DNA from: Solirubrobacterales bacterium
GTDB lineage: Bacteria > Actinomycetota > Thermoleophilia > Solirubrobacterales > 70-9
Assembly (NCBI GenBank): GCA_017304845.1
Contig: JAFKLL010000013.1
Location: 62,001 to 126,000 of the forward strand
Length of the DNA stretch: 64,000 nucleotides
Direction of reading: 5' to 3'
Shown here: positions 2,568 to 57,606 of the stretch, in pieces
Numbering within the stretch: the first letter of the stretch is position 1
Layout of the letters: each line of letters starts with the position of its first letter
Notes under the pieces: model-generated
Database searches by the model: none
Seen by the model: only the letters and a program-made list of their open reading frames with translations
What the model was told of the DNA's origin: nothing
Translations under genes and position numbers: made by a program

Positions 2568-3740
2568 CTACCGGAAGGCCTGGATGCCGGTCAGCGCCTG
2601 GCCGACCGAGAGGGCGTGGACCTCGGCGGTGCCCTCATAGGTGACGACCGACTCGAGGTTGTTCATGTGGCGGATCACCGGGTACTCGACGGTGACGCCG
2701 TTGGCCCCGTGGACCTGCCGGGCGGTGCGGGCTACTTCCAGGGCGCCGTTCACGTTGGCGAACTTGCCCATGCTGACGTGATGCGGGCGGATCTTGCCCT
2801 CGTCCTTCATCCGGCCGAGGCGGAGCGCCGTCAGGTAGCCGCGGTTGACCTCGGTGGCCATCTTCGCGAGCCGTTCCTGGATCAGCTGGAAGGAGGCGAT
2901 CGGCCGGTCGAACTGGATTCGGGTGAGGCTGTACTCCAGGGCCGAGTGGTAGCAGGCGCGGGCGGCGCCGACCGCGCCCCAGACGATGCCGTAGCGGGCC
3001 TCGTTGAGGCAGGAGAGCGGGCCGCGAAGGGTGTCGACCTCGGGCAGCTCGGCGCTGGCGGGGAGCCGGACGTCGTCGAGCAGCAGCTCGGAGGTGACCG
3101 AGGCGCGCAGCGACATCTTGCCCTTGATGTCCTGGGTGGTGAACCCCTTGGTGCCGCGCGGCACCACGAAGCCGCGGACGGCCTCGCCGTCCCGGGCCCA
3201 GACCACGGCGACCTCGGAGACGGAGCCGTTGGTGATCCACATCTTCTGTCCGTTGAGGATCCAGTCGTCGCCGTCGCGACGGGCGGTGGTGCGCATCGAG
3301 CCCGGGTCGGAGCCGCTGTCGGGCTCGGTCAGGCCGAAGCAGCCGATCGCCTCGCCGGCCGCCATCTTCGGCAGCCATTCCTGCTTCTGCTCCTCGGAGC
3401 CCCACTTCCAGATCGCGAACATGGCCAACGATCCCTGTACGGAGACGAGGCTGCGGATGCCGGAGTCGCCGGCCTCGAGCTCCATGCAGGCGACGCCGTA
3501 GGCGGTGGCGCTGGCCCCGGCGCAGCCGTAGCCCTCGAGGTGCATGCCGAGCAGCCCGAGCGAACCGAGCTCGCGGGCCAGCTCGAGCGGGATCTCGCCC
3601 CGGTCGAACCATTCCCCGATCTCGGGGAGGACCCGGTCCCCGACCCACTTCCTGACGGTTTCCTGGAGGAGCTTCTCCTCGTCGGTGAGCTGTGAGCTGA
3701 TGTCGAGGAAGTCGAGCGGGTCGACGGTGCTGGAGGTCAT
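2568..3740 (-). CDS. gcdH: Glutaryl-CoA dehydrogenase (acyl-CoA dehydrogenase family)
   Basis: This 390-residue flavoprotein matches the glutaryl-CoA dehydrogenase branch rather than general acyl-CoA dehydrogenases. It has the FGLTEPDSGSDP flavin loop, FDRPIASFQLIQ, RHMNNLESVVTYEGT, and Glu369 in TYEGT at the place of the catalytic base. The enzyme oxidatively decarboxylates glutaryl-CoA to crotonyl-CoA and passes electrons to ETF. It is the first gene of a three-gene operon with 3-hydroxybutyryl-CoA dehydrogenase and a CoA-transferase. An AAGGGA sequence lies just upstream of the ATG. The AT-rich 3769-3786 palindrome and a strong hairpin separate it from the regulator genes upstream, so it probably has its own promoter. 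Confidence 0.9.
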   Translation of the reverse strand: MTSSTVDPLDFLDISSQLTDEEKLLQETVRKWVGDRVLPEIGEWFDRGEIPLELARELGSLGLLGMHLEGYGCAGASATAYGVACMELEAGDSGIRSLVSVQGSLAMFAIWKWGSEEQKQEWLPKMAAGEAIGCFGLTEPDSGSDPGSMRTTARRDGDDWILNGQKMWITNGSVSEVAVVWARDGEAVRGFVVPRGTKGFTTQDIKGKMSLRASVTSELLLDDVRLPASAELPEVDTLRGPLSCLNEARYGIVWGAVGAARACYHSALEYSLTRIQFDRPIASFQLIQERLAKMATEVNRGYLTALRLGRMKDEGKIRPHHVSMGKFANVNGALEVARTARQVHGANGVTVEYPVIRHMNNLESVVTYEGTAEVHALSVGQALTGIQAFR

Positions 3741-3768
3741 GGGTCCCTTCGAGTCATGGTTGATTTCC

Positions 3769-3786
3769 TAGATAATATACAATCTA
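3769..3786. promoter_or_regulatory. AT-rich palindromic operator/promoter candidate upstream of gcdH
   Basis: This is an 18-bp AT-rich stretch in otherwise very GC-rich DNA. Its 5-bp arms TAGAT and ATCTA flank an AT core. It lies about 30-45 bp before the gcdH start, where a promoter would sit, and on the minus strand it contains TATATT and TATTAT, both possible -10 hexamers. AT-rich GT/AC palindromes are common operators of FCD-type GntR proteins. The GntR gene immediately upstream (3845-4501) is the obvious candidate binder. Visible: palindrome and AT-richness. Inferred: function. Confidence 0.5.
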
Positions 3787-3796
3787 TAATCGAGCT

Positions 3797-3847
3797 TGAG
3801 AACGGCCTGGCAACGCTCTCTCCTCCCATCCAGCCAGGCCGTTCTCA
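3797..3847 (-). terminator. Strong hairpin at the 3' end of the GntR gene
   Basis: The arms TGAGAACGGCCTGGC and GCCAGGCCGTTCTCA form a perfect 15-bp stem with a 21-nt loop. The right arm covers the stop codon of the GntR gene. No U-tract follows on the minus strand, as is usual for GC-rich actinobacteria. It would separate the importer/regulator operon from the gcdH operon. Confidence 0.7.
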
Positions 3848-4501
3848 GGCCGGCTCTTCGAGGATGCCGCGCAGCACCTCGAGAGCCCGGGAGCGATGCG
3901 AGTCCAGGGCGCCGATCAGCTCGTCGACCTGACGCGCCAAGGCGAGCTCGACCATCACGTCATGGGCGTCCATCGCCGCCGACGTCTCCTCGGCCGAGTT
4001 GTAATAGAGGGCCCGGTAGGCCTCGGTCTTGTCCCAGAGGTTGCCGATGATCCCCAGCGTGTGGGGCCGCCCGGGAGCGTCCATCAGGCAGAAGTGGAAC
4101 TCCCGGTTGGCGCCCAGCTCACCCAGGACGTCGCGTGACTCCGCCGCCACCCGGCAGGCCCCGGCCGCCGCGACCAGCCTCGCCTCCATCACCCCGTCGA
4201 AGGAGTCCATGGTCCAGCGCACGGCCCGCTCCTCGAGCAGCTCGCGCAGCCCGTAGATCTCTTCGAGGTCGCCGATCCGCAGCTCGTTGACGAAATGCCC
4301 GCGGCGCGGCAGATAGGTGAGCTGGCCCTCGCGCTCGAGGACGCGCATCGCCTCGCGGACGGGGACGATGCTCACCCCGACCTGCTCGGCGACTTCCTCC
4401 TGCCCCACCCGCTGGCCGGGTCGCAGCCGCCGGCTGACGATCGCCTCCCGCAGCCACTCGACCACGTGCTCCTGACTCGTCTTGGGGCTGCTGCCGGGCA
4501 A
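3845..4501 (-). CDS. GntR-family transcriptional regulator (FadR/FCD type)
   Basis: This 218-residue regulator has an N-terminal winged helix, residues about 10-75, with RPGQRVGQEEVAEQVGVSIV and the wing LEREGQLTYLPRRGHFV. An all-helical FCD ligand-binding domain follows, with metal-ligand-type residues in NREFHFCLMDAPG. FCD GntR proteins usually repress catabolic operons until a carboxylate-type metabolite or its CoA ester binds. The start is a TTG five bases after the stop of the second GntR gene, and no clear Shine-Dalgarno is seen. It ends the importer operon and faces the gcdH operon, so either may be its target. The AT palindrome at 3769 is a candidate operator. Confidence 0.88.
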   Translation of the reverse strand: MPGSSPKTSQEHVVEWLREAIVSRRLRPGQRVGQEEVAEQVGVSIVPVREAMRVLEREGQLTYLPRRGHFVNELRIGDLEEIYGLRELLEERAVRWTMDSFDGVMEARLVAAAGACRVAAESRDVLGELGANREFHFCLMDAPGRPHTLGIIGNLWDKTEAYRALYYNSAEETSAAMDAHDVMVELALARQVDELIGALDSHRSRALEVLRGILEEPA

Positions 4502-4506
4502 CCGGG

Positions 4507-5295
4507 TCAGCTCGAGACGGTGGGGGTGATCCCGCTCCGCCAGAGCCTCACATAGTGCGGGCGCAGCCCGTCGAGATGAGCGTGCATCCGTTTCTCGGCC
4601 AGCTCCGCATCACCCGACTCCACCGCCTCGAGGATCAGGCGGTGATCCTCGTTGACCTGATGCATCGCCTCATGGGTCATCTCCCGCCGCCGGAAGTTCT
4701 CCTGGACCACGCCGAACACGGGCTGCGCGGCGATGTGGAGCAGGGTGTTGCCGGAGGCCGAGAGCAGATGCCCGTGGAACCCGTCGTCGCAGGAATACTG
4801 GGTCTCGGACCCGATCAGCTCCGGGTCGCTGATGATGAAGGCGCGCAGGATCTCGAGGTCCTCCTCGCTGCGGCGCTTGGCGGCCAGCCGGGCCGCGAAG
4901 CCCTCCAGCAGGTCCCGGACCTCGAGCAGCTCGTTCGGCGAGACGTCCTGCGCCTCGTTCAGCAGAGCGATGTTCGACTGCAGGAACTCCGAGATGTGAT
5001 CCGGGGTCGGCAGGGTGACGAAGCTGCCTCCGGTCGCGCCCTTGGTGGTGCGGACCAGATTCTCCGAGGAGAGCATCTTCAACGCCTCGCGTGCCGTCCC
5101 TCGACTGACACCGAACTGCTGGGCCAGAAGCGCCTCGCTGGGCAGCTTCTGGCCACGTTTCAATTCACCGCTCGTGATCAGCGAACGGAGCTGGTCATAT
5201 ACCTGTTCCGAGGCACGCCGGACCCGGGTGACCGATGCCCCCAGAGGGGCATTGCCATTCGAATCCGACCTTTTGCTCTCTCCGCTCACGCTCAT
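4507..5295 (-). CDS. GntR-family transcriptional regulator (FadR/FCD type)
   Basis: This 262-residue protein has about 30 disordered N-terminal residues and a winged helix at about 30-100 (QVYDQLRSLITSGELKRGQKLPSEALLAQQFGVSRGTAREAL is the pattern, split here by helix turns). An FCD domain with DDGFHGHLLSASGN and NEDHRLILEAVESGD follows. Its ATG directly abuts the TGA of the permease gene, so it is the fourth cistron of the importer operon and probably senses the imported compound. The best candidate operators are the twin TGTCNNACA-type sites at 9198-9206 and 14475-14483, which sit next to the -35 boxes of this operon and of the AA_synth/amidase operon. Confidence 0.88.
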   Translation of the reverse strand: MSVSGESKRSDSNGNAPLGASVTRVRRASEQVYDQLRSLITSGELKRGQKLPSEALLAQQFGVSRGTAREALKMLSSENLVRTTKGATGGSFVTLPTPDHISEFLQSNIALLNEAQDVSPNELLEVRDLLEGFAARLAAKRRSEEDLEILRAFIISDPELIGSETQYSCDDGFHGHLLSASGNTLLHIAAQPVFGVVQENFRRREMTHEAMHQVNEDHRLILEAVESGDAELAEKRMHAHLDGLRPHYVRLWRSGITPTVSS

Positions 5296-6309
5296 TCAGC
5301 CATTGACCGCGATGCGCCGACGCTCGTTGCGCCGCCTCACCAACTCCGACATTACCACCGCGATTATGAGGGCACCGCCATAGAACAACTGCTGGACGAA
5401 TGAATCTGCGCCCAGTAGCTGCAGGCCGGTGATGCCACTGACCAGGAAGAACACCGCGATGAACGTTCCCCACGGGTTGAACCTTCCCGGTTGGATCGTG
5501 GTCGCCCCCAGATAGGCCGCCGCGAAGGCCGGCAGGAGGAAGCTCAGGCCCGAGGTCGGATCGGCCGTGCCGAGCATGCCGGCGTACGCGACACCCGCCA
5601 GGCCGGCGATGAAGCCGGAGGCGGTCAGCGCCCCGATCCGCACGCGGTCGACGTTGATTCCGCTGAGCAGAGCCACGTTCCTGCCCCGGCCGACGAACAG
5701 CAGCCGCTTGCCGAGCGCGGTCCGCCCCATCACGTACCAGAGGATCACGGTGAGCAGGAGGCCGTACCAGAACAACATCGAGATGCCGAGGAAACGGTTC
5801 GTCACCGTCCAGTCGATCAGCGTGTTGCTCACCCCGGTAATGGTCCTCGCATCGGATATCCAGAGCACCACCCCCTGGAGGATCGTCCCCACCCCCAATG
5901 TCACGATGAAGGAGTCGATTCCGATCTTGACCACGATCAGGCCATTGATCAGACCGATCAACGTGCCGACCGCGATGGCCAGCAACATGGTGGGAAGCAA
6001 GGGCCACCCGTGATCGACCTGGAATATCGCGACCACCATCGAGGTGAGGGTCAGGTTCGCGGCGACCGACAGGTCGAAATCACCCGTGGTCAGCGGAACT
6101 ATCAGCGCCATCGCCAGGATCAGGAGCACGGCCTGCGATCCGAAGATGGTCTGGAAGTTGCCGGTCGTGAAGTACGTGTCGGGCCGCGCCAGACTGAACC
6201 CCAGCACCAGGATCGCCCAGACGAAGAGCAACGCGAAACGCTGCCCGAAGTTCTTGGTCCACGCCGGCCGCCGGGCCGCCCCCGCCACTGTCTGCTGAAT
6301 ACCGCTCAC
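5296..6309 (-). CDS. ABC transporter permease, ribose/RbsC type
   Basis: This 337-residue inner-membrane protein has about ten hydrophobic segments. It carries hallmarks of the branched-chain/ribose permease superfamily: LTTGDFDLSVAANLTLTSM after the third helix, VVKIGIDSFIVTLGVGTILQG, and LPAFAAAYLGATTIQPGRFNPWGT near the C-terminus. It would form a homodimeric channel for solute delivered by the lipoprotein encoded at 7938-9113. Its start overlaps the stop of the ATPase gene by 4 bp. RbsC-type permeases serve pentoses, inositol, autoinducer-2, purine-like and other polar solutes, so the family alone does not give the substrate. Confidence 0.93.
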   Translation of the reverse strand: MSGIQQTVAGAARRPAWTKNFGQRFALLFVWAILVLGFSLARPDTYFTTGNFQTIFGSQAVLLILAMALIVPLTTGDFDLSVAANLTLTSMVVAIFQVDHGWPLLPTMLLAIAVGTLIGLINGLIVVKIGIDSFIVTLGVGTILQGVVLWISDARTITGVSNTLIDWTVTNRFLGISMLFWYGLLLTVILWYVMGRTALGKRLLFVGRGRNVALLSGINVDRVRIGALTASGFIAGLAGVAYAGMLGTADPTSGLSFLLPAFAAAYLGATTIQPGRFNPWGTFIAVFFLVSGITGLQLLGADSFVQQLFYGGALIIAVVMSELVRRRNERRRIAVNG

Positions 6310-7934
6310 ATCGCCTCCTCTTGGAACTGCTCCATCTCTGACAAGGTCACGCTCTGGAGCACCTGCGAGGAGATCTCCTCCTTGGTCAACTCCGCACCGC
6401 TCATCTCCCGGGACACCTCACCGCGCGCGATGATCAGAACCCGATCGCATATCTGGGCCAGCTGCTCCGAGTCCGAGCTCGCGCAGACCACGGCCAGGCC
6501 GTTCTCCGCCGCGCGTCCCAGAAGCTCGAAGATCTGCTCCCTCGCACCGATGTCGACGCCCTGCGTCGGCTCATGCAGGAGCAGGATGCCCGGCTTCGCC
6601 TCCAGCCACTTGGCCAGGAGGACCTTCTGTTGGTTGCCGCCGCTGAGCGCCCCGAACACGGCGTCCGGGTCGCGCGGCCGGACATCGAACTCCTCCAGCA
6701 GCTCGTTGGCCCGCTCCGTCATCCGACGGTTGTCGAGCCGCCAGGGCCGGTAGCCCTGCATCACCTGCATCATCAGGTTGTCCAGCACCGACACACCGCC
6801 CAGTGCGCCGTCGCGCTGCCGGTCGGAGGGCAGCAGCGCCATGCCCGACTTGAGCGCCGCCCCGGGCGAGAGCCGGGTCAGATCGGTGGTCCGGCCGTCC
6901 CTGGCCAGCACCCCTTCGCTGACCGGCTTGGCGCCGAAGAGCGAGTAGGGGACGTCCTCGAACCCGGAGCCCATCAGCCCGGTCAGACCGAGGATCTCAC
7001 CGTCGTTCAGCTCGAAGTCGATGCCCCGCAGCCGCGGCCCGCGAAGGCCCCGCACGCTCGCGCCGCCCCGGGCCTGGGCCTGGCGGCCCCGGTCCCGCAG
7101 CGGCGCCGCCTCGGCCAGGTGGCGGCCGATGATCATCTCGACCAGGCCGGCCTTGTCCATGTCGGCGGTCCGGGCGTTGCCGAAGACCGCGCCGTCGCGG
7201 AGGACGGTCACGGCGTCGGTCAGCTCCAGCACCTCGTCGATGTCATGGGACACGAAGAGCACCGAGACGCCGCGGGCGGCGACGGTCCTCACCATGTCGA
7301 AAAGTCTCGTGATCCCTTCCCGGGGCAGGAACACGGTCGGCTCGTCGAGGACCAGCAGACCGCCTCCCGAGTCGGCGATGCCCATCACCGACCGGACGAT
7401 CGCCAGCAGCGCCGCGTCGGTCTCGCTGATCGAGGTCAGGGCGCTGTCGGGATCGAGATGCGAGAGCCCGTACTCCTCGAAGATCCGGTTCGCCCGCTCG
7501 CGTTCCTTGCGGGCGCTGAGGGCGAGGTCGTGGGCTGATCCCCACTCGACCAGCCGCAGGTTCTCCAGCACGGTCAGCTCTCGGATCAGGCCGAGGTCCT
7601 GGTGCACGAAGGAGAGGCCCAGGTCCTGGAACCGGCCGGGCGCCAGGGGCAGGTCCACCGGCCGGCCGTCCACCTCGAGGGTGCCGGCGTCGGGCTGGTG
7701 GAAGGCGTTGAGGATCTTGATCAGGGTCGACTTGCCCGACCCGTTCTCGCCGAGCAGGCCGTGGATCTCGCCCGCTCGCACCTCGAGGTCGACTCCCTTC
7801 AGGGCATGCGATCCACCGAACGACTTGCGGAGCCCGCTGAGCTTGAGTCGCGGCGCCACCGGGGAGGGCGCCGGCGGCGGCATCATGCCGCCGCCGATCT
7901 CCCTCGGTGCCGCTTTGTCAGTGGCGGCGCTCAC
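6306..7934 (-). CDS. ABC transporter ATP-binding protein, RbsA/MglA type (two fused ATPase domains)
   Basis: This 542-residue tandem ATPase energises the RbsC-type permease. Domain 1 (about 30-270) has Walker A GENGSGKST and Walker B LLVLDEPT. Where LSGGQ is expected it has the degenerate SISETDAALLAIVRS. Domain 2 (about 290-520) has a degenerate Walker A (GLMGSGFED), as is normal in RbsA proteins, and a good signature LSGGNQQKV. Its Walker B reads LLLHEPTQGVD, with His where Asp is usual. The first 25 residues are a Pro/Ala-rich extension. It starts with GTG three bases after the stop of the substrate-binding-protein gene. Confidence 0.93.
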   Translation of the reverse strand: MSAATDKAAPREIGGGMMPPPAPSPVAPRLKLSGLRKSFGGSHALKGVDLEVRAGEIHGLLGENGSGKSTLIKILNAFHQPDAGTLEVDGRPVDLPLAPGRFQDLGLSFVHQDLGLIRELTVLENLRLVEWGSAHDLALSARKERERANRIFEEYGLSHLDPDSALTSISETDAALLAIVRSVMGIADSGGGLLVLDEPTVFLPREGITRLFDMVRTVAARGVSVLFVSHDIDEVLELTDAVTVLRDGAVFGNARTADMDKAGLVEMIIGRHLAEAAPLRDRGRQAQARGGASVRGLRGPRLRGIDFELNDGEILGLTGLMGSGFEDVPYSLFGAKPVSEGVLARDGRTTDLTRLSPGAALKSGMALLPSDRQRDGALGGVSVLDNLMMQVMQGYRPWRLDNRRMTERANELLEEFDVRPRDPDAVFGALSGGNQQKVLLAKWLEAKPGILLLHEPTQGVDIGAREQIFELLGRAAENGLAVVCASSDSEQLAQICDRVLIIARGEVSREMSGAELTKEEISSQVLQSVTLSEMEQFQEEAM

Positions 7935-49165: not shown

Positions 49166-50125
49166 TCAGCAGCCGGTCGGCGCGGAGACCCGGTCGGCCA
49201 GGTGCGCCGCGGTCCAGCGGGCGATGTGGCTGAGCATCGATTGGCCCGACTCGAAGCTCCCGTCATCGGGGATCGCCGCCATCGCGACGACGATCTCCTT
49301 GCCGTTCACGTCCATCACTCCCATCTGCCGGACCAGGTACTTCCCGTCGAGGCCGGGCCCCCAACCGCCCTTCCACTTGGCGGGGAATCCGGCCGCGCCG
49401 AGCCCGTAGGTGTCGCTGCCGCCGACCGCCGCCATCTTGCCGAGCAGGTAGGCCCGGCTGGCGGAATCGCTCACGCAACCCCCGGCCAGGGCGGCCATGT
49501 AGCGGAACTGATCGGCGAGCGACCACTCGGTCTGGCCGTAGGTCGAGAAGCCGTCGCGCCCCTGGGTGGAGATCACCGTGGTGCCGTCGCCGGCCTGGCG
49601 GAGCACCTCGCCGACCGCTTCCGAAGCGCCTCCGAGGCCGCCGTGCTCGGCTTCCAGATCGGCGAAGAGAGCCGCCGCGGCATCGTTGTCGGAGAGCGTG
49701 ATCGCGTTGGTGATCTCGCTCTCCTGAGCGGCCGTGAGGCCGCTCGGCCCGCCGGCGTCCTGAAGCACCCGGGCCACGATCGGGACCTTGATCGTCGACC
49801 AGGCGTCGCCGGTGCCGAACGATCCGCCGCTCAGGTCCGGGCCGCCGGATCCGGGCGCCCCGACCGCCAGGCCGGCGCTCCCTCCCAGACGGCCCAGCAT
49901 CGCCCCGACCCCGGGGTCGGCCTCCGGGTCGGCGGCCGCGGCCGCATGCTCGCGGGCCGCCTGCTCGTCGTCGATCTGGTCTCGCAGCCGATCGATCCGA
50001 TCCTCGAGCCGCTTGACCTGGGCGGAACGATCCGGCGCGGGCGGGACCGTGGCGTCCTCATCCGAACCGCCGCAGCCGGCCACGACCAGACCGAGGCAGA
50101 GCCCGGCTGCGAGGAGGAGCCTCAA
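49166..50125 (-). CDS. Exported serine hydrolase, class A beta-lactamase fold (lipoprotein)
   Basis: This 319-residue protein has a lipoprotein signal with lipobox VVAGC (Cys18), then a coiled-coil-like linker (RSAQVKRLEDRIDRLRDQ). The penicillin-binding/beta-lactamase domain has Ser110-x-x-Lys113 in WSTIKVP, Ser145-Asp146-Asn147 in ITLSDNDAAAA, and a KGG triad in KWKGGWGP. The class A omega-loop Glu is not obvious, so it may be a D,D-peptidase- or esterase-like relative rather than a true beta-lactamase. TTG start, overlapping the stop of the upstream lipoprotein gene by 4 bp. It probably acts on the cell wall. Confidence 0.82.
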   Translation of the reverse strand: MRLLLAAGLCLGLVVAGCGGSDEDATVPPAPDRSAQVKRLEDRIDRLRDQIDDEQAAREHAAAAADPEADPGVGAMLGRLGGSAGLAVGAPGSGGPDLSGGSFGTGDAWSTIKVPIVARVLQDAGGPSGLTAAQESEITNAITLSDNDAAAALFADLEAEHGGLGGASEAVGEVLRQAGDGTTVISTQGRDGFSTYGQTEWSLADQFRYMAALAGGCVSDSASRAYLLGKMAAVGGSDTYGLGAAGFPAKWKGGWGPGLDGKYLVRQMGVMDVNGKEIVVAMAAIPDDGSFESGQSMLSHIARWTAAHLADRVSAPTGC

Positions 50126-50607
50126 GGCAGGTAGACCGTCGCCCCGTTCCCGCCGGAGCAGACCGTGCCGCCGCCGCTCCAGGATCCGCAGGACATCGTG
50201 TACTGCTGGCCGGTCACCGGGCTGTACGCGGTGATGGTCGAGGCGCCCGGGTTGCTGCCCTTCTCGCCGGCCACGTTCATGGCGAAGGAGCAGGAGGTGT
50301 TCGGCCCCACCTGGACCCCGTCGCCGCAGCTCGACACCGGACCGGCCGCGGAGCTGGAGCCAGAGCCCGAGGACTGGCTCTGGGTGCCGACGTTCTGATC
50401 GGAACCTCTGCTCTTCTGCTTCTGCAGCTGATTGATCTGTCGCTGAAGCTGGTTCAGCTTGGCCTGGTCGCGGGCCTCCTTGGCGCCCTCAGCCCGGGCC
50501 GCGTCCAGCTCGTCCTGGCTGGCGCCGTCATCACCCCCGCAGCCGTAGGCGAAGAGGCCGAGGCACAGCACGGCCAGGACAGCGAGCACTCCCTTGCGAC
50601 GAGACAT
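50122..50607 (-). CDS. Cys-rich lipoprotein with coiled-coil stalk
   Basis: This 161-residue protein has a signal peptide ending in a lipobox-like FAYGC, then a charged coiled coil at about 30-65 (KLNQLQRQINQLQKQK) and a Ser/Gly linker. A compact C-terminal domain holds four cysteines (SSCGDGVQVGPNTSCSF; TMSCGSWSGGGTVCSGG) that could make two disulfides. That C-terminal domain resembles small secreted modules seen on actinobacterial surface proteins. The leaderless hexamer TAAGCT lies 6 nt before the ATG. It overlaps the serine hydrolase gene by 4 bp, so the pair may act together at the membrane surface. Confidence 0.72.
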   Translation of the reverse strand: MSRRKGVLAVLAVLCLGLFAYGCGGDDGASQDELDAARAEGAKEARDQAKLNQLQRQINQLQKQKSRGSDQNVGTQSQSSGSGSSSAAGPVSSCGDGVQVGPNTSCSFAMNVAGEKGSNPGASTITAYSPVTGQQYTMSCGSWSGGGTVCSGGNGATVYLP

Positions 50608-50619: not shown

Positions 50620-50676
50620 GCCCCGCTTCACGGGTTCTTGGGGTGTCCACCACGACGTTTCCCACAACCCCCTGAA

Positions 50677-50682
50677 TATCCT
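50677..50682 (+). promoter_or_regulatory. Leaderless -10 hexamer (TATCCT)
   Basis: TATCCT, a 6-nt spacer GGAGCC, then the ATG at 50689. The spacer contains GGAG, but it is too close to the ATG to serve as an ordinary ribosome site. Confidence 0.6.
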
Positions 50683-50688
50683 GGAGCC

Positions 50689-52782
50689 ATGAGGAGAACC
50701 CGAACCGCCATCGCCGGCCTCGCCGCGATCTGCGCCGCCTTCGTCCTGCCCGCCGTCGCCTCGGCCGACTGCTCGCTGAGCGCGGCCAGCGACGACTACC
50801 TGTCCGGCGGCACCACCCAGACCTTTTCCGGCCACTTCGACCCGAACCTGAACGGCAAGTTCGTCCAGCTCCCCTTCCACGTGGACAGCGGGACCAGGGG
50901 CATGCGAATCCGGTACTGCTTCGCCAAGTCCGACCCGGCCGACGACGGCCCGACCCTGGACCTCGGCGTCTACGGCGCCAGGCCGGCCGGGGAGACCAGC
51001 TGGAGCCAGGACGAGCGTCGCGGCTGGAGCGGCAGCGCCCTCCGCACGGTCGGCATCGGCGAGAACGGGTACACGGACGAGACGACTTACAACGCGAGCC
51101 GCAAGGCCTACGTGCCCGGGTTCACCACCCGCGCCTTCAAGCCCGGCCCGATCGACGCGGGCGAGTGGGCGGTCGAGCTCGGGGCCGGATGGATCGACCC
51201 GGACGGCGCCGGAGTCGACTGGAAGGTCGAGGTCGTGACCAGCCCCGACTCGAACTGGTCGAACGCCCCCTTCACGCCGGACCCGTACTCGTCCTACGTC
51301 GCCGATGCGGATCCCGGCTGGTACACCGGCGACCTCCACGCGCACGGCGAGATGGAGCCCGGCAACGCGCCGATGCGGCAGACCTTCGATCTCGGCTTCA
51401 AGCCGCTGGCCCAGGGCGGCACCGGCCTCGACTTCATGACGATCGTCGACCACAACAACGACAACTCGCGGAGCGTGCTGGGCGGCTACACCGGCGACTA
51501 CCCGGGCAAGCTGATCATCCCCGGGGTCGAGGTCACGACCTATGACGGGCATGCCAACGCGCAGTACTCGAACCAGTTCGCGGACTTCCGGTTCAGCGAC
51601 GTGTACCGCTGGGACGACGACGACAACGACGACGCCGAGACCGCGGACGAGCTCAGCCTGGTCCGTCCCTCGATCGACCCGTCCTCGCAGTTCCAACGCA
51701 TCCTCGACGGTGACGGCTTCACCCAGGTGAACCACCCGGAGACGCTGAAGAGCGCCCCGGCCGCCTGCCGCGGCTGCGCCTGGACCTACAGCGACGAGCG
51801 CACCGGCTGGGGCAAGGTCAGCGCCCTGGAGATCCAGAACGGCGCCGCGGCCTTCCCGGCCAACCAGCCGACCCCGCCGAGCGCGATGAACCCGTTCACG
51901 CTCGACGCGATCACCCTCTACGAGCGGCTGCTGGCCGCCGGGTTCCACATCGCCGCGGTCGGTTCGAGCGACGACCATCAGGGCGGCGGCGCCACCGGCC
52001 CCACCGATTCAGAGGTGGGTCGCGGGGCGACGGTCGTCCACGCCGACCAGCTCTCGCCCGGCGCGATCGTCGCCGCGGTGAAGGCGGGCCACACCTACGT
52101 GAAGCCGTTCGGCGCCGATGCCCCCGACGTCGACCTGACCGCCTCCGGCCCGGGAACCGGGACCGCCCTGCCGGGCGACTCGGTCACCTCCTCGAGCCTC
52201 GACATCAAGATCGACGTCAAGGGCGCGGCCAGCGCGGTCCGACCCGGCCCGTACACGCTGAAGCTGCTCCAGGACGGGATCGAGGTCGGATCGGTGCCGG
52301 TGACCGGCGACGATTTCAGCCACACCTTCACGGTGACCGAGACGGGCCGCTACTCGTTCGAGCTGACCCGGATCCTGACCGGGACCAACGTCGGGATCGA
52401 GGCCTACTCGACCCCGGTCTGGTTCACCTACAAGAAGCCGGACGTCACGCCTCAGCCCCCGTCGAACGCCTTCAGGTTCGGGGCTTTCAAGGCAAACCGC
52501 AAGAACGGCACCGGCACGCTCAAGGTGCGGGTCGCGAGCCCCGGCCGGGTCAAGCTGACCGGCAAGGGGATCGCCGCCGCCTCGGCCCGGGTCAAGGCCA
52601 AGAACCAGACCGTGACCCTGCGGATCCGGCCCAAGGCCGCGCTCAAGAAGCGGCTGAAGAAGCGCGGTGTCGCCTCGGTCCGCCTGCGGGTGACGAACGC
52701 CCCCACCGGCGGCAAGGCCCTCAGCAAGTCGAAGACGGTCAAGCTGCGCGCCAAGAAGGCGAAGAAGCACCGCCGCCGCTAG
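50689..52782 (+). CDS. Secreted PHP-type (CehA/McbA-like) metallohydrolase with basic C-terminal tail
   Basis: This 697-residue protein has a signal peptide (IAGLAAICAAFVLPAVASA), an N-terminal beta domain of about 170 residues and a PHP-like catalytic domain at about 210-490. Metal-binding segments are WYTGDLHAHGEM, MTIVDHNNDN, GVEVTTYDGHAN, QVNHPE and VGSSDDHQGG. A beta domain and a Lys/Arg-rich tail ending KAKKAKKHRRR follow, probably for wall or surface binding. CehA/McbA relatives hydrolyse carbamates or phosphoesters, but the native substrate is unknown. The leaderless hexamer decides the start at 50689 over an upstream TTG. Confidence 0.82.
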   Translation: MRRTRTAIAGLAAICAAFVLPAVASADCSLSAASDDYLSGGTTQTFSGHFDPNLNGKFVQLPFHVDSGTRGMRIRYCFAKSDPADDGPTLDLGVYGARPAGETSWSQDERRGWSGSALRTVGIGENGYTDETTYNASRKAYVPGFTTRAFKPGPIDAGEWAVELGAGWIDPDGAGVDWKVEVVTSPDSNWSNAPFTPDPYSSYVADADPGWYTGDLHAHGEMEPGNAPMRQTFDLGFKPLAQGGTGLDFMTIVDHNNDNSRSVLGGYTGDYPGKLIIPGVEVTTYDGHANAQYSNQFADFRFSDVYRWDDDDNDDAETADELSLVRPSIDPSSQFQRILDGDGFTQVNHPETLKSAPAACRGCAWTYSDERTGWGKVSALEIQNGAAAFPANQPTPPSAMNPFTLDAITLYERLLAAGFHIAAVGSSDDHQGGGATGPTDSEVGRGATVVHADQLSPGAIVAAVKAGHTYVKPFGADAPDVDLTASGPGTGTALPGDSVTSSSLDIKIDVKGAASAVRPGPYTLKLLQDGIEVGSVPVTGDDFSHTFTVTETGRYSFELTRILTGTNVGIEAYSTPVWFTYKKPDVTPQPPSNAFRFGAFKANRKNGTGTLKVRVASPGRVKLTGKGIAAASARVKAKNQTVTLRIRPKAALKKRLKKRGVASVRLRVTNAPTGGKALSKSKTVKLRAKKAKKHRRR

Positions 52783-52804: not shown

Positions 52805-53185
52805 TCAGGGCGGGGATGACGGTGGCGCCGGAGCCGCTGTCATCCCGGCCAGCTCCGACTGAGCCGAGGCGGCCTCCGACTGGGCCGCCGAGGCCCGCTG
52901 TTCGAGGATCACCTTCGCGGCGTCCGACTCGGCGGCCATGCCGCCGGCCACGATCCCGTGGTCGTGCCCGGAGCGGCGGCCCGCGAGGAACCCGCGCCGC
53001 GCCATCGCCCGGCTGACCTCTTCCTCGGTCCGCGTCCGGGTCTGTTCGAAGGCCTCCTTCTCACTGAGGTCGGGGCCGTCGTCGCCCGGCTTGGCGGCCA
53101 GGCCGATCGCGAAGCCGATCCCGGCCGACACGACCAGGGCCAGGACGGCGGCCAGGGCCGGTCGTCGCCACTCACTCCTGATCAT
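52805..53185 (-). CDS. Single-pass membrane protein with tandem GxxxG motif (third gene of operon)
   Basis: This 126-residue protein has an N-terminal membrane segment (about 8-30: PALAAVLALVVSAGIGFAI) and a hydrophilic, mostly helical outer part. It contains RGFLAGRRSGHDHGIVAG, five Gly spaced by four residues, matching the pattern RGxxAGRxxGxxxGxxxG of its two upstream neighbours. The C-terminus is an Ala/Ser/Gln-rich helix (ASAAQSEAASAQSELAG) and a Pro-rich end. It overlaps the previous gene by 14 bp. The reading frames cover the operon without gaps. Function unknown. Confidence 0.75.
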   Translation of the reverse strand: MIRSEWRRPALAAVLALVVSAGIGFAIGLAAKPGDDGPDLSEKEAFEQTRTRTEEEVSRAMARRGFLAGRRSGHDHGIVAGGMAAESDAAKVILEQRASAAQSEAASAQSELAGMTAAPAPPSSPP

Positions 53186-53690
53186 GCTTGCCCTTCTGCG
53201 CCTGCTTCGCCTTCTCCTTCTCGGCCTCCTCCTGCGCCTCCTTGGCGGCCCTGACCGCGGATCTGTAGCTCGCCAGCTCGTCGCTGGTCGGGCACCACGA
53301 GGGCGCCGCCGGGACGATCCCGCAGTTCGCCTGCCGGGCCGCTATCTCCGACTCGGCCGAGGACTGGGCCGACTGGGCGGCCTTGGTCGCATCGACCAGG
53401 CTGGTGATCTCGGCGTTGCCGCTGCCGATCCCGGTCCCTTCCCGCGACCCAGTCTTGGCGCCGGCCGTCTCGCCCCGGCTGCGGCCGGCCTGCAGCCCCC
53501 GCTTCGCGGTGGCGTCCCGGGTCTCGGCGAAGGCCGTGTCGAATGCCTGCTGGTAGCCCTCCGCGCGGGCCGACTCGGCGTCGCCGCGCCCGTCGGCGTC
53601 GCCGGCCCCGAGCGACCAGCCGATGACGGCCGCGATCAGCACGGTCATCGCGGCTCCGATCAGCCAGGGGGTGAGGCGGCCGGCGCTCAC
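53172..53690 (-). CDS. Single-pass membrane protein with tandem GxxxG motif (second gene of operon)
   Basis: This 172-residue protein has a membrane segment at about 8-28 (WLIGAAMTVLIAAVIGWSLG), a helical stretch (EGYQQAFDTAFAETRDATAK) and the motif RGLQAGRSRGETAGAKTG followed by SREGTGIG, giving seven Gly at four-residue spacing. A helix and a small segment with two Cys (NCGIVPAAPSWC) lead to a highly charged tail (KEAQEEAEKEKAKQAQ). It overlaps both neighbours, by 4 and 14 bp. Topology suggests that nearly all of it lies outside the cytoplasmic membrane. Function unknown. Confidence 0.75.
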   Translation of the reverse strand: MSAGRLTPWLIGAAMTVLIAAVIGWSLGAGDADGRGDAESARAEGYQQAFDTAFAETRDATAKRGLQAGRSRGETAGAKTGSREGTGIGSGNAEITSLVDATKAAQSAQSSAESEIAARQANCGIVPAAPSWCPTSDELASYRSAVRAAKEAQEEAEKEKAKQAQKGKHDQE

Positions 53691-54397
53691 GGATCGGGTA
53701 CTTCGATCTGCTTGTTCTTGGGCGCGTCCATCCCGGCGTCCTCGTAGGCTCGGATGTAGTTCCTCCGGTAGGAGGCCGTGTAGGACTTCTTGAAGGCGAC
53801 GTCGCGGCCCTTCTTGAAGCCGTCCGCGTAGCCCTGGGTCGCGCCGGCGACCGCGCCGGCCTGGCGGCCCGCCGCCTCGCCTCGCAGGCGGGCCAGATCG
53901 ACGTCCTCACCGGATCCCTTGCCCAGCAGGTAGGCCCCGAAGCCGATCAGGAGGGCGGCCATCGCGATGCCGGCGCCGGCCAGGACCTTCTGGCCGTCGA
54001 TCTCCCGGCGGGGGATCCGGATCTCGCTGACCTTGCCGAGCAGACCGCTGCCGGCCTGCTTGGCCTTCTGACCGAGCTCGACCGAACGGGCACGCATCGC
54101 GGCGATCCGATCGGGGCGCTCGGCCTTCTCCGCCGGCGCCTCCGCGTCCTCGTCGTCTTCCTCTTCAGCCTCGTCCTCGTCCTCGTCTTCGTCTTCCTCG
54201 TACTCGGCCTCGTCCTCTTCGAAGAGGTCCTCTTCCTCGAACTCCTCCTCGTCGAGCGCGACCTCCGGCTCGGGCTCCGGCTCAGCCGGCGGCGCATCCT
54301 CCAGGCGGTACTCCTTGGTCTCCTCGGCAGCCTGAACGGCCCCCTGGGTGAACATCTCCTGGGTGTCTTCTGGATTCGGCTTTCCGGATGTGGGCAT
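53687..54397 (-). CDS. Acidic single-pass membrane protein with tandem GxxxG motif (first gene of operon)
   Basis: This 236-residue protein has a very acidic, low-complexity cytoplasmic half (about 20-85) and then a basic juxtamembrane stretch (RIPRREIDGQK). The membrane segment is at about 137-157 (LAGAGIAMAALLIGFGAYLL). The outer part carries RGEAAGRQAGAVAGATQG and YADGFKKG, seven Gly at exact four-residue spacing. A Tyr/Arg-rich end (KKSYTASYRRNYIRAYEDAG) follows. It is first of three overlapping genes and is divergent from the beta-propeller protein gene at 54550. Function unknown; the design suggests a membrane-tethered helical assembly. Confidence 0.78.
   Translation of the reverse strand: MPTSGKPNPEDTQEMFTQGAVQAAEETKEYRLEDAPPAEPEPEPEVALDEEEFEEEDLFEEDEAEYEEDEDEDEDEAEEEDDEDAEAPAEKAERPDRIAAMRARSVELGQKAKQAGSGLLGKVSEIRIPRREIDGQKVLAGAGIAMAALLIGFGAYLLGKGSGEDVDLARLRGEAAGRQAGAVAGATQGYADGFKKGRDVAFKKSYTASYRRNYIRAYEDAGMDAPKNKQIEVPDP
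54142..54262. repeat. Low-complexity triplet tract encoding poly-Asp/Glu
   Basis: A run of about 120 bases of CTC, GTC and TTC triplets on the plus strand is read on the minus strand as the Glu/Asp tract of the first GxxxG-operon protein. Such tracts slip readily, so length may vary between strains. Confidence 0.7.
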
Positions 54398-54549
54398 TTC
54401 CGCTTTCGGATCGTGGGCTCAGACCAATGTTTACGCAAGATGGCCCCGACGAAAACCCTTGACCGAAATCTCCCCGATCCGTTGCCGCCCGGAGTAGGAT
54501 CGAGATCATCGTGACGGAGCGGCGGATCCGCTCCAGGGGAAGGAATCAC

Positions 54550-57500
54550 ATGGGGGACATCTCGAGCAGGGTCAAGGCGTCGACGATCGGGGCGGTGCTC
54601 TTGGCACTCGCGTTCTGCGCTCCGGCCACGGCCGGGCCGGCCGGGCCCGGCACCACCTTCCCGATCACCTACCTAGACCTGCCAGCAGGGTCCGTCGCGG
54701 GCGGCCCCTCAGGGCTCTCGGGTCCCGGCTACGGGCAGTCGCCGGTGAGCGGGGACGGCCGGTTCGTCCTCTTCACCTCGACCTCGAACAACCTCGTCGC
54801 GGACGCGGACAGGGACCAGAACAACCTCTTCCGCAAGGACACCCAGACCGGCGACGTGGTGATGGTCAACCGCCTCACCGGCAAGAACGGCACCTCGACC
54901 GCCGGTGATCTCTACTCCTACGCGATCAGCAGCAACGGCAAGCGGGTCGCCTTCGTCACCTCGGACCAGGCCGACCCGGGAGACACCGACGACAAGAGCG
55001 ACGTCTACCTGCGAGACATCCCCGCCGGGACCACGACCCTGCTCACCCCGGGAACCGCCGACTACTTCGGCGAAGTCGACATCTCCGGCGACGGCAACTA
55101 CGTCACCTACTCCACGGTCAACGCGATGGTCGGGGGCGACGGCAACGCCGACACCGACATCTACCGCCAGAAGGTCGACGGGGGCTCGCCCGAGCTGGTC
55201 TCCCGCATCCCCGCCGCCGTCACCGCCGGCAACGACCGCTCGAGCGAGCCGACGATCAGCTCGGACGGCCGCTGGGTCGCCTTCTCCTCGGTGGCCACCG
55301 ATCTCGTCACCGGGTTCACCGATGGCAACGGCGGCTTCAACTCGGACGTCTACGCGAGGGACATGAACCTCGGCTCGACCTACCTGGTCAGCTCCCGCTA
55401 CGACTCGACCACCACCGGCGGCAACGACGAATCGAGCGAACCCGACCTGGCCGGGACCGCCGCCGCGATCGGCGGCCTGAGGATCGCCTACTCGAGCTGG
55501 GCGACCAACCTGGCCGACAACGGGATCACCGACCCGGACAGCCAGTCCAGCGTCTACTACAAGACGATGGGCGCAACCGCCTCGGAGTTGGTCAGCCGGG
55601 CCACCGGGCCGGCCGGGGCGAACGCGAACAGCCGCGCCCACACCCCGAGCATCAGCGCCGACGGCACCCGGATCGTCTTCTCCAGCGACGCGACCAACCT
55701 CGGTGCGCCACCGGACTACTACGGCGTCTACATGCGCGATCGGTCCAACTCGTCCACCTCGCTCGTCTCCGCCAGGACCGAGTACGCGGTCAGCGGCACC
55801 ATCGCCGGGGACGGCAGCCTCGCCGCCTGGACCGAGCAGGGAGGCGCCACGGCCGACAGCGACCCCGACCTCACCGGAGTCTTCTCGAGAACGGTGCCGA
55901 GCGGCCCGATCAAGCTGGTCTCGCGCCCGAAGGGCAGCGAGAAGGTCCTCGCCCCCGGCTTCTACCCGGACTTCGGGGAGAGCGGCAAGGTGCTGAGCGA
56001 CGACGGGCGATACGTGGTCTTCTCGGCCGCGACCTCCCGTCTGGAAGGCGGGTCGACGAACAAGCCGGAGGTCTACCGGCGAGATCTGGCGACCGGGAAG
56101 ATCGAACTCGTATCGCGGGCCAGCGGCGTCGGGGGAGCGGTCTCCGAGGGCGCCGACAACCCGTCGATCAGCAACGACGGCAACCTGATCGCCTTCAGCT
56201 CCTGGAGCAGCCTTGACGCCGCCGACGGCAACACGGAGGGCGACGTCTACGTGCGCGACATGACCAGCCACCAGACCGTGCTCGCCTCGCGGGCCGACGG
56301 CGTGGCCGGGGCGGTCGCCGGCAACGGGGCCGACATCCCGTCGATCAGCGGCAACGGCAAGCGGGTCGCTTTCCGCTCCGACTCGTCCAACCTCGGCGCC
56401 CCGGGCGGCACCGACCGCGTCTTCGTCCGCGACCTCGAGGCCGGCAAGACGATCGTCGCCTCCCGGGCCGACGGCGTGGCCGGAGCGATCGCCGACGCCT
56501 CCTCGACCCGACCGATGTTGAGCGACGACGGCGACCGCGTCATGTTCATGTCCAGCGCCGCCAACCTCGACCCGGACGATCTCAACGGGATGCAGAGCGT
56601 CTACGTGCGCGATCTCGGCGCGAACGACACCACCCTGGTTTCGCGGGCGCCCGGCCTGACCGGCGCCTCGCTGTCCGACTTCGTCTACGACGCGACGATG
56701 AGCGGCGACGGCACCCGCGTCGCCTTCGTGACCCCGCAGGACGCGGCCGTCCCGGCCACCGCCCCCTGGCCCGTCGGCTTCGGCCAGGTCGTGCTGAGGA
56801 ACCTGACCGACGGCTCTAACACGCTGATCAGCCAGTCCGCGGGAGGCCAGCCCGGCGAGAGCTCTTCCCGGGATGCGTCCCTGAACCGCGACGGCAGCGT
56901 CATCGCCTTCGAGACCACGTCGCAGAACATCCGACCCGAGATCGACTACTCGAATCGCTCGACCGTCGTGGTCGAGGATCTGAGCGACGGCTCGATCGGC
57001 GGGCCGCCCGCCTTCGGCTCCCCGACGGTGTCCATGACCGGCTCGTCCTCGCCCTTCGTCAGCTCGAACGGTCTCTGCGTGGTCTTCACCGCCCTCGGGC
57101 ACAACGCCATCTCCGGCGATCTCGGCGACGTGGAGTCCGGATACGTCTACGCCCGCGCGCCCGGATGCCAGAACCCCCGGGCGATCGCGCCGAAGCTCAG
57201 CCGCGTCACCATGAAGCCGGCCCGGTTCCGGGTCGCGAAGGGTCGCACCGCAACGGTCGCGAAGCGGGCCCGGAAGGCGCCGCGCGGCACCAGGATCGCC
57301 TTCACGTTGAACACCGGAGCCGACGTGACCATCTCGATCGAGCAGCGCCTCAAGGGGCGCCGCGTCAAGGGCAAGTGCGTGCGGGCGACCAAGGTCAACC
57401 GGCGCAAGAAGGCCTGCGCCCGCTTCGTCAAGCGCGGCAAGCTGGTGCGCCGTGATCTCGGCGCCGGCCGCACCGTGGTCAAGTTCACGGGCCGGGTCGG

Positions 57501-57606
57501 CAAGAAGGCCCTGAAGCCGGGCCGCTACCGGATCCGGGTGCGGGCGGTCAACGCGACCGGAGCCTCGAAGACGGTCAACCGGGCCTTCCGGGTGGTCAAG
57601 CGCTAG
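54550..57606 (+). CDS. Large secreted TolB/PD40-type beta-propeller protein
   Basis: This 1018-residue protein has a signal peptide (IGAVLLALAFCAPATAG). About twelve 55-60-residue blades follow, each with the core S-x-DGR-x-VAFSS and an ending like YVRDLxTGxTxLVSR. Examples are SGDGRFVLFTS, SSDGRWVAFSS, SDDGRYVVFSA and SGNGKRVAFRS. The last 140 residues form a basic, Cys-containing domain (RATKVNRRKKACARFVKRGKL; KALKPGRYRIRVRAVN) typical of secreted Thermoleophilia proteins. GGGGAAGGA 6 nt before ATG 54550 fixes the start; an upstream GTG at 54511 is less likely. It probably binds a surface ligand. No catalytic motif is seen. Confidence 0.85.
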   Translation: MGDISSRVKASTIGAVLLALAFCAPATAGPAGPGTTFPITYLDLPAGSVAGGPSGLSGPGYGQSPVSGDGRFVLFTSTSNNLVADADRDQNNLFRKDTQTGDVVMVNRLTGKNGTSTAGDLYSYAISSNGKRVAFVTSDQADPGDTDDKSDVYLRDIPAGTTTLLTPGTADYFGEVDISGDGNYVTYSTVNAMVGGDGNADTDIYRQKVDGGSPELVSRIPAAVTAGNDRSSEPTISSDGRWVAFSSVATDLVTGFTDGNGGFNSDVYARDMNLGSTYLVSSRYDSTTTGGNDESSEPDLAGTAAAIGGLRIAYSSWATNLADNGITDPDSQSSVYYKTMGATASELVSRATGPAGANANSRAHTPSISADGTRIVFSSDATNLGAPPDYYGVYMRDRSNSSTSLVSARTEYAVSGTIAGDGSLAAWTEQGGATADSDPDLTGVFSRTVPSGPIKLVSRPKGSEKVLAPGFYPDFGESGKVLSDDGRYVVFSAATSRLEGGSTNKPEVYRRDLATGKIELVSRASGVGGAVSEGADNPSISNDGNLIAFSSWSSLDAADGNTEGDVYVRDMTSHQTVLASRADGVAGAVAGNGADIPSISGNGKRVAFRSDSSNLGAPGGTDRVFVRDLEAGKTIVASRADGVAGAIADASSTRPMLSDDGDRVMFMSSAANLDPDDLNGMQSVYVRDLGANDTTLVSRAPGLTGASLSDFVYDATMSGDGTRVAFVTPQDAAVPATAPWPVGFGQVVLRNLTDGSNTLISQSAGGQPGESSSRDASLNRDGSVIAFETTSQNIRPEIDYSNRSTVVVEDLSDGSIGGPPAFGSPTVSMTGSSSPFVSSNGLCVVFTALGHNAISGDLGDVESGYVYARAPGCQNPRAIAPKLSRVTMKPARFRVAKGRTATVAKRARKAPRGTRIAFTLNTGADVTISIEQRLKGRRVKGKCVRATKVNRRKKACARFVKRGKLVRRDLGAGRTVVKFTGRVGKKALKPGRYRIRVRAVNATGASKTVNRAFRVVKR

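What the first reader, a model, noticed from the sequence alone, without database searches (positions are those of the whole stretch)
52805..54397. Three-gene operon of single-pass membrane proteins that share an extramembrane tandem GxxxG motif
Three overlapping genes encode different-length proteins (236, 172, 126 residues), each with one membrane segment. Each carries the same pattern RGxxAGRxxGxxxGxxxG in the hydrophilic part: RGEAAGRQAGAVAGATQG, RGLQAGRSRGETAGAKTG and RGFLAGRRSGHDHGIVAG. Gly recurs every fourth residue seven, seven and five times. Flanking regions differ greatly: poly-acidic cytoplasmic domain, Cys pair with charged tail, Ala/Gln helix. Glycine zippers normally pack helices in membranes. 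A repeated zipper placed outside, in three co-translated partners, suggests a heteromeric helical fibre, stalk or sheath tethered to the membrane. I know of no described system of this form.
Basis: partly seen in the sequence, partly recalled or inferred. Interest (0 to 1): 0.75.

Follow-up and report, generated by a model that had tools for sequence, protein, structure and literature searches.

The report
Paired extracellular glycine-ladder membrane proteins
This operon of an uncultured actinobacterium encodes small membrane proteins that each stick a very long, glycine-stepped helix out of the cell; the first two are always encoded as a pair with mirror-image glycine and aromatic halves, so they probably zip together into a stalk, a new membrane-bound use of a zipper known so far from cytoplasmic proteins.

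Summary
Three co-directional, overlapping genes (A 236 aa, B 172 aa, C 126 aa) each encode one TM segment plus a GxxxG ladder (7, 7 and 5 exact steps; 0, 0 and 7 of 20,000 shuffles reach this). The interpretation needs correcting. C is a duplicate of B, confined to this genus. The conserved unit is an A-B pair, adjacent at every well-matched locus with room, in several families of the class, even when divergently oriented. The ladder is probably extracytoplasmic: relatives carry it C-terminal to a Ser/Thr kinase, or with a distal SGNH-type domain. Ladder glycines are the most conserved residues, and AlphaFold gives single 86-87-residue helices. In 23 pairs, A has bare glycines near the membrane and aromatics farther out, B the reverse, in matching register. 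I propose a parallel A-B helical stalk held by complementary Gly/aromatic steps. Pairing is inferred; no complex could be modelled. Polar GX3 ladders are known in FliH/YscL (same Tyr/Phe-after-Gly bias) and Yae1-Lto1, where they mediate hetero-complex formation, so this is a membrane-anchored variant of a known kind. No family library matches above cut-off. Payload and physiological role are unknown.

The parts
53687..54397 (-). Gene A (236 aa): acidic N-terminal cytoplasmic tail, TM, GX3 ladder helix, short Pro-ended C-terminus
54122..54292 (-). Gene A, residues about 36-92: poly-acidic cytoplasmic segment (predicted without structure, variable among relatives, absent in the two-gene relatives)
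53921..53986 (-). Gene A, residues about 138-159: transmembrane segment
   Evidence: hydropathy; helix 135-220
53735..53881 (-). Gene A, residues 173-221: four-residue small-residue ladder; exact Gly 173-197, with small+aromatic steps in the outer part (Y190 F194 F202 Y206 Y210 Y214 Y218)
53172..53690 (-). Gene B (172 aa): TM, ladder helix, loop with a Cys pair, charged helix
53607..53669 (-). Gene B, residues about 8-28: transmembrane segment
53424..53558 (-). Gene B, residues 45-89: ladder; small+aromatic steps first (Y46 F50 F54), then exact Gly 65-89
53292..53324 (-). Gene B, residues 123-133: Cys pair (NCG...WCP), conserved in the genus, in the loop between the two last predicted helices
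52805..53185 (-). Gene C (126 aa): paralogue of B, without the Cys loop and last helix
53093..53161 (-). Gene C, residues about 9-31: transmembrane segment
52943..52993 (-). Gene C, residues 65-81: five-step exact Gly ladder

Best explanation
A and B are obligate partner proteins, N-terminus in and C-terminus out, whose TM helix runs on (directly in A, after a short break in B) into an extracytoplasmic helix of about 9 nm stepped every four residues by Gly or another small residue. The two helices pack side by side, in parallel and in register: bare-glycine steps of one receive the aromatic steps of the other (A: glycine near the membrane, aromatic farther out; B: the reverse). The result is a heterodimeric stalk or coupling rod that holds whatever is fused to or bound by its ends (a Cys-pair hairpin in this genus, an SGNH-type domain in a sister genus; on the cytoplasmic side an acidic tail). 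C is a duplicated B that may substitute for B or add a third helix. Shown: genes, ladders, conservation, strict A-B adjacency, B-C paralogy, opposite polarity of Gly and aromatic halves. Predicted: helices. Inferred: topology (from fusions and flanking charge), pairing, stalk function.
For: Strict adjacency: 16 of 17 strong A loci in the class sample have B next to them, the 17th being at a contig end; gene order and orientation change (overlapping in f1 and f3, divergent in f4: G039, G045) but the pair stays; also found in family f12 (G270). Ladder Gly conserved 92-100%. Opposite Gly/aromatic polarity in 22 of 23 pairs clearly, one borderline (G050 A about zero), with best complementarity at register 0 to +4 residues from the TM end; proteins not used to define the pattern (G270 A and B, G262 B) follow it. 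AlphaFold: one helix 135-220 in A, 35-121 in B, block pLDDT mostly 75-97. Topology: the same TM+ladder is C-terminal to a Pkinase domain (L082, E 1.4e-38), and B of genus g2 ends in a GDSL/SGNH-type domain (E 1.2e-4, below Pfam's cut-off) beside acyltransferase-3 genes; basic residues precede and acidic residues follow each TM (sequence). Precedent: GX3 motifs required for Yae1-Lto1 complex formation (PMC4523923); Tyr/Phe at over 45% of x1 positions of FliH GxxxG (PMC2674601), matching the aromatic phase here.
Against: No complex prediction was possible, so no contact is shown. Opposite polarity is an inherited property, so 23 pairs are not 23 independent tests. In FliH, aromatics and glycines share the same helix, so complementarity between chains is not required for GX3 packing. 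A 4.0-residue period drifts 40 degrees per step on an ideal helix, so long pairing needs a strong right-handed twist. Several same-genus genomes have no detectable B, so the pair is dispensable.
Confidence: 0.6

Rival explanations
1. The ladders drive homodimers (A-A, B-B, C-C), as in FliH; A, B and C are adjacent because they arose by tandem duplication and share a task, not because they bind each other.
For: FliH is a homodimer with the same repeat type (PMC2674601); B and C are clear duplicates; A and B share the TM-end motif; solo relatives such as the kinase fusions must self-associate if they associate at all.
Against: A and B never appear without each other, across very different loci and orientations; their Gly and aromatic halves are oppositely arranged in register.
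Confidence: 0.2
2. The ladder is not an interaction surface between A and B but a wall-anchoring or spacer rod, the charged glycine helix binding peptidoglycan or wall polymer and merely positioning the distal domains.
For: Probable extracytoplasmic location and length of about 9 nm; many Arg/Lys in x positions; variable distal heads.
Against: x positions are poorly conserved (38-44%) while the glycines are almost invariant, which points to close helix packing rather than to a charged binding surface.
Confidence: 0.1
3. A and B are mainly a signalling pair: A's acidic tail with repeated [ED]T[QRK]E[MY] motifs is a substrate of Ser/Thr kinases, and the ladder passes the state of the outer domains to the inside, as it may in the ladder-bearing kinases of related families.
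For: TM+ladder occurs as the outer part of Ser/Thr kinases; the [ED]T[QR]E[MF] motif is conserved in most genus g1 orthologues; one locus is beside a histidine kinase and response regulator (L069).
Against: The acidic tail and the motif are missing in the two-gene relatives; no kinase gene was seen next to the operon in g1.
Confidence: 0.1

Closest known systems
FliH / YscL (flagellar and type III secretion ATPase regulator), AxxxG(xxxG)mxxxA repeats
   Same: Long polar GxxxG ladder in a predicted helix outside the membrane; Tyr/Phe strongly favoured directly after Gly (PMC2674601; here); weak NCBIfam hits fall on the ladder
   Different: FliH is a soluble cytoplasmic homodimer binding FliI; here TM-anchored, probably extracytoplasmic, in an A-B pair, without the FliH C-terminal domain; scores 11-21 bits against cut-offs of 180 or more
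Yae1-Lto1 deca-GX3 pair (Fe-S adaptor for Rli1/ABCE1)
   Same: Two small partner proteins each with a GX3 ladder; mutations of the ladder glycines of Lto1 impair complex formation (PMC4523923)
   Different: Eukaryotic, soluble, cytosolic; no TM; Pfam Yae1_N does not match A, B or C, only weakly the ladder of a kinase relative (E 0.001, below cut-off)
Membrane GxxxG / glycine-zipper dimers (glycophorin A type)
   Same: Gly every fourth residue as a helix-packing surface
   Different: Hydrophobic and inside the bilayer; here the ladder has charged x positions and lies outside
Ser/Thr protein kinases with an extracytoplasmic GX3 ladder in the same class (L082, L083, L104, L105, L107)
   Same: TM followed by the same kind of ladder
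   Different: Single protein with kinase domain; Gly and aromatics not split between two partner proteins

Membership tests
FliH / YscL | Profile match above curated cut-off, including the C-terminal FliI-binding domain | tested here: not met
   Best 21 bits vs cut-off 192 and only over the ladder
FliH / YscL | GxxxG ladder with Tyr/Phe bias at x1 | tested here: met
   Aromatics fall almost only at the position after the small ladder residue: 5.43 of 6.8 per A and 2.96 of 3.3 per B; bias in FliH from PMC2674601
FliH / YscL | Cytoplasmic, soluble | tested here: not met
   Each has a TM segment
Yae1 / Lto1 (deca-GX3) | Pfam Yae1_N match | tested here: not met
   No hit for A, B or C at E<1
Yae1 / Lto1 (deca-GX3) | Two partner GX3 proteins forming a complex through the ladders | tested here: inconclusive
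   Obligate adjacency and complementary polarity; binding itself not testable here
TM glycine-zipper dimer | Gly ladder within the hydrophobic membrane segment | tested here: not met
   Ladder starts about 14-37 residues after the TM end and is rich in charged residues
Known anti-phage defence systems | PADLOC model match | tested here: not met
   No hit for A, B, C or the two flanking genes

The most novel reading that the evidence does not exclude
A previously undescribed class of extracytoplasmic hetero-zippers in this actinobacterial class: two single-pass proteins with mirror-image Gly/aromatic ladders zip into a rigid rod outside the cell, a four-residue counterpart of a heterodimeric coiled coil, used as an interchangeable mount for outer domains (Cys-pair hairpin, SGNH-type enzyme) and, in solo form, as the outer stalk of Ser/Thr kinases.
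Probability: 0.4. Interest if true: 0.68.

Novelty: new variant of a known kind. Interest (0 to 1): 0.52.

Why it matters
Long polar GX3 ladders were called surprisingly rare outside FliH (PMC2674601, 2009), and no structure of a long one was then known. A set of small natural A-B pairs with an apparent Gly-against-aromatic pairing rule would let the packing of such ladders be solved and tested directly, and would offer a heterodimerising helix pair distinct from heptad coiled coils. It also gives a first reading of uncharacterised membrane proteins of a largely uncultured group.

Tried and rejected
Pfam, NCBIfam and PADLOC searches of A, B and C: nothing above cut-off. PDB sequence search with A and B core profiles: no credible hit. 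Foldseek of the B model against PDB: none. Literature searches for such proteins in Solirubrobacterales, or for actinobacterial extracytoplasmic glycine zippers: none in the held library. Considered and rejected: three unrelated partners (C is a B paralogue); membrane-embedded zipper (charged x positions); spurious ORFs from high GC (reading frames and glycines conserved in many genomes); FliH membership. A phylum-wide sample gave no A hit outside the class among 296 genomes.

Full report
Observation. The three genes are real and lie where stated, in the order A, B, C on the minus strand, with a 4-nt overlap (GTGA) between A and B and a 14-nt overlap between B and C. Each has a single strong hydrophobic segment. 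The exact Gly-x3 ladders (7, 7, 5 steps) are not chance: 0, 0 and 7 of 20,000 shuffles of the same composition match them. In relatives the ladder glycines are 92-100% conserved, other glycines 40-69%, and the x positions 38-44%. The shared string RGxxAGR is partly a coincidence of this genome; Arg172 of A is Glu or Gln in most orthologues, and A's motif sits nearer the membrane than that of B and C.

Relatives. B has relatives mainly in the same genus (13 of 61 near relatives searched); two of these contigs have the same lengths as the two named records found, both titled MAGs of Solirubrobacterales. Profile searches over about 300 genomes of the class find A-like sequences in 28 and B-like in 51, the weaker ones of different build; a phylum-wide sample found none outside the class. 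Every strong A has B beside it except one A at a contig end: genus g1 (with C), second loci of g1 and genus g2 (A-B only), families f3 (G050, G298, G312) and f4 (G039, G045, where A and B are divergently transcribed), and f12 (G270). B and C are homologous over about 107 residues including the ladder and the Ala/Gln-rich helix (hhalign E 1.5e-16), so C is a duplicated B, seen only in g1. A and B share the TM-end motif; whether their ladders are homologous cannot be told from repeats.

Topology. In family f5 the same TM plus ladder follows a cytoplasmic Ser/Thr kinase domain (L082, Pkinase E 1.4e-38; also L083, L104, L105, L107 by sequence). In genus g2 (L070, L072, L073) B ends in a GDSL/SGNH-type domain (E 1.2e-4, below Pfam's own cut-off) beside acyltransferase-3 genes; such domains act outside the membrane in known AT3-SGNH proteins (established knowledge, not tested here). 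Basic residues before and acidic residues after each TM agree. The ladder is therefore most likely extracytoplasmic and A's acidic tail cytoplasmic. This is inference; no topology experiment exists.

Shape. AlphaFold2 with 23 and 25 related sequences gives one helix 135-220 in A (TM plus ladder) and helices 7-29 (TM), 35-121 (ladder) and 136-170 in B, the last two joined by the Cys-pair loop 123-133. Long single helices in a monomer model say that the ladder is helical, not what it binds. The part outside the membrane is about 60 residues or 9 nm. Foldseek finds nothing comparable to the B model in the PDB.

Pairing rule. Aligned on the TM end, 23 A-B pairs show: at +10 to +30 A has 4.1 Gly and 0.5 aromatics, B 1.0 Gly and 2.0 aromatics; at +42 to +66 A has 1.7 Gly and 4.5 aromatics, B 5.5 Gly and 0.3 aromatics. 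The agreement between aromatics of one and glycines of the other is best at a shift of 0 to +4 residues (correlation 0.43-0.53) and is negative at 20 or more; a thinned set of 12 lineages gives the same. By centre of mass, 22 of 23 pairs are clearly of opposite polarity and one is borderline; proteins not used to define the pattern (G270, G262) agree. [quoted passage not shown] In Yae1-Lto1, GX3 ladders of two different proteins are needed for their complex (PMC4523923). Together these make a parallel, in-register A-B heterodimer the best explanation (0.6). The polarity is inherited, so it is one conserved fact seen many times, not 23 independent facts.

Function. The outer heads vary (Cys-pair hairpin, SGNH-type domain, short Pro-rich ends) while the paired ladder stays, so the constant job is to join two TM proteins and hold things at a distance from the membrane. 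What is held in this genus is not known. In g1 the operon often lies near a secreted PD40 beta-propeller gene, a CehA/McbA-type metallohydrolase and a small lipoprotein, but this may be simple synteny within the genus. The pair is dispensable: several same-genus genomes lack B.

Place among known things. No Pfam, NCBIfam or PADLOC family is matched above cut-off. It works like, but is not a member of, FliH/YscL and Yae1/Lto1. The new features are membrane anchoring, probable extracytoplasmic place, obligate pairing with mirrored Gly/aromatic halves, and reuse on kinases. I rate it a new variant of a known kind, interest 0.52.

Noticed in passing
window 54302-54373 (gene A N-terminus): Two [ED]T[QRK]E[MY]-type motifs (EDTQEMF, EETKEY) conserved in most genus g1 orthologues of A; they recall phospho-threonine/FHA-type motifs of actinobacteria (from memory, untested).
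   Followed up: partly
L082 4789-6285 -, L083 4297-5634 +, L104, L105, L107: Ser/Thr kinases whose outer part is a FliH-like GX3 ladder with 14-21 glycines followed by a small Cys-containing end; Pfam Yae1_N hits the ladder of L082 weakly.
   Followed up: partly
L070, L072, L073: B proteins ending in a GDSL/SGNH-type domain, beside acyltransferase-3 genes that themselves carry SGNH domains; suggests an extracytoplasmic O-acylation system using the A-B mount.
   Followed up: partly
L077 (G050) 2825-7165: The A-B pair sits inside a housekeeping cluster (by eye rsmD-, coaD-, plsX- and acpP-like; by Pfam a weak DivIVA/ATP-synt_B-like protein and YceD).
   Followed up: no
window 50638-52782 + and 54511-57606 +: A CehA/McbA-family metallohydrolase and a PD40 beta-propeller protein flank the operon and recur beside it in several same-genus genomes.
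   Followed up: partly
window 50122-50607 -: Small putative lipoprotein with a C-terminal Cys-containing domain (YSPVTGQQYTMSC), also near A-B in L026, L031 and L033.
   Followed up: partly
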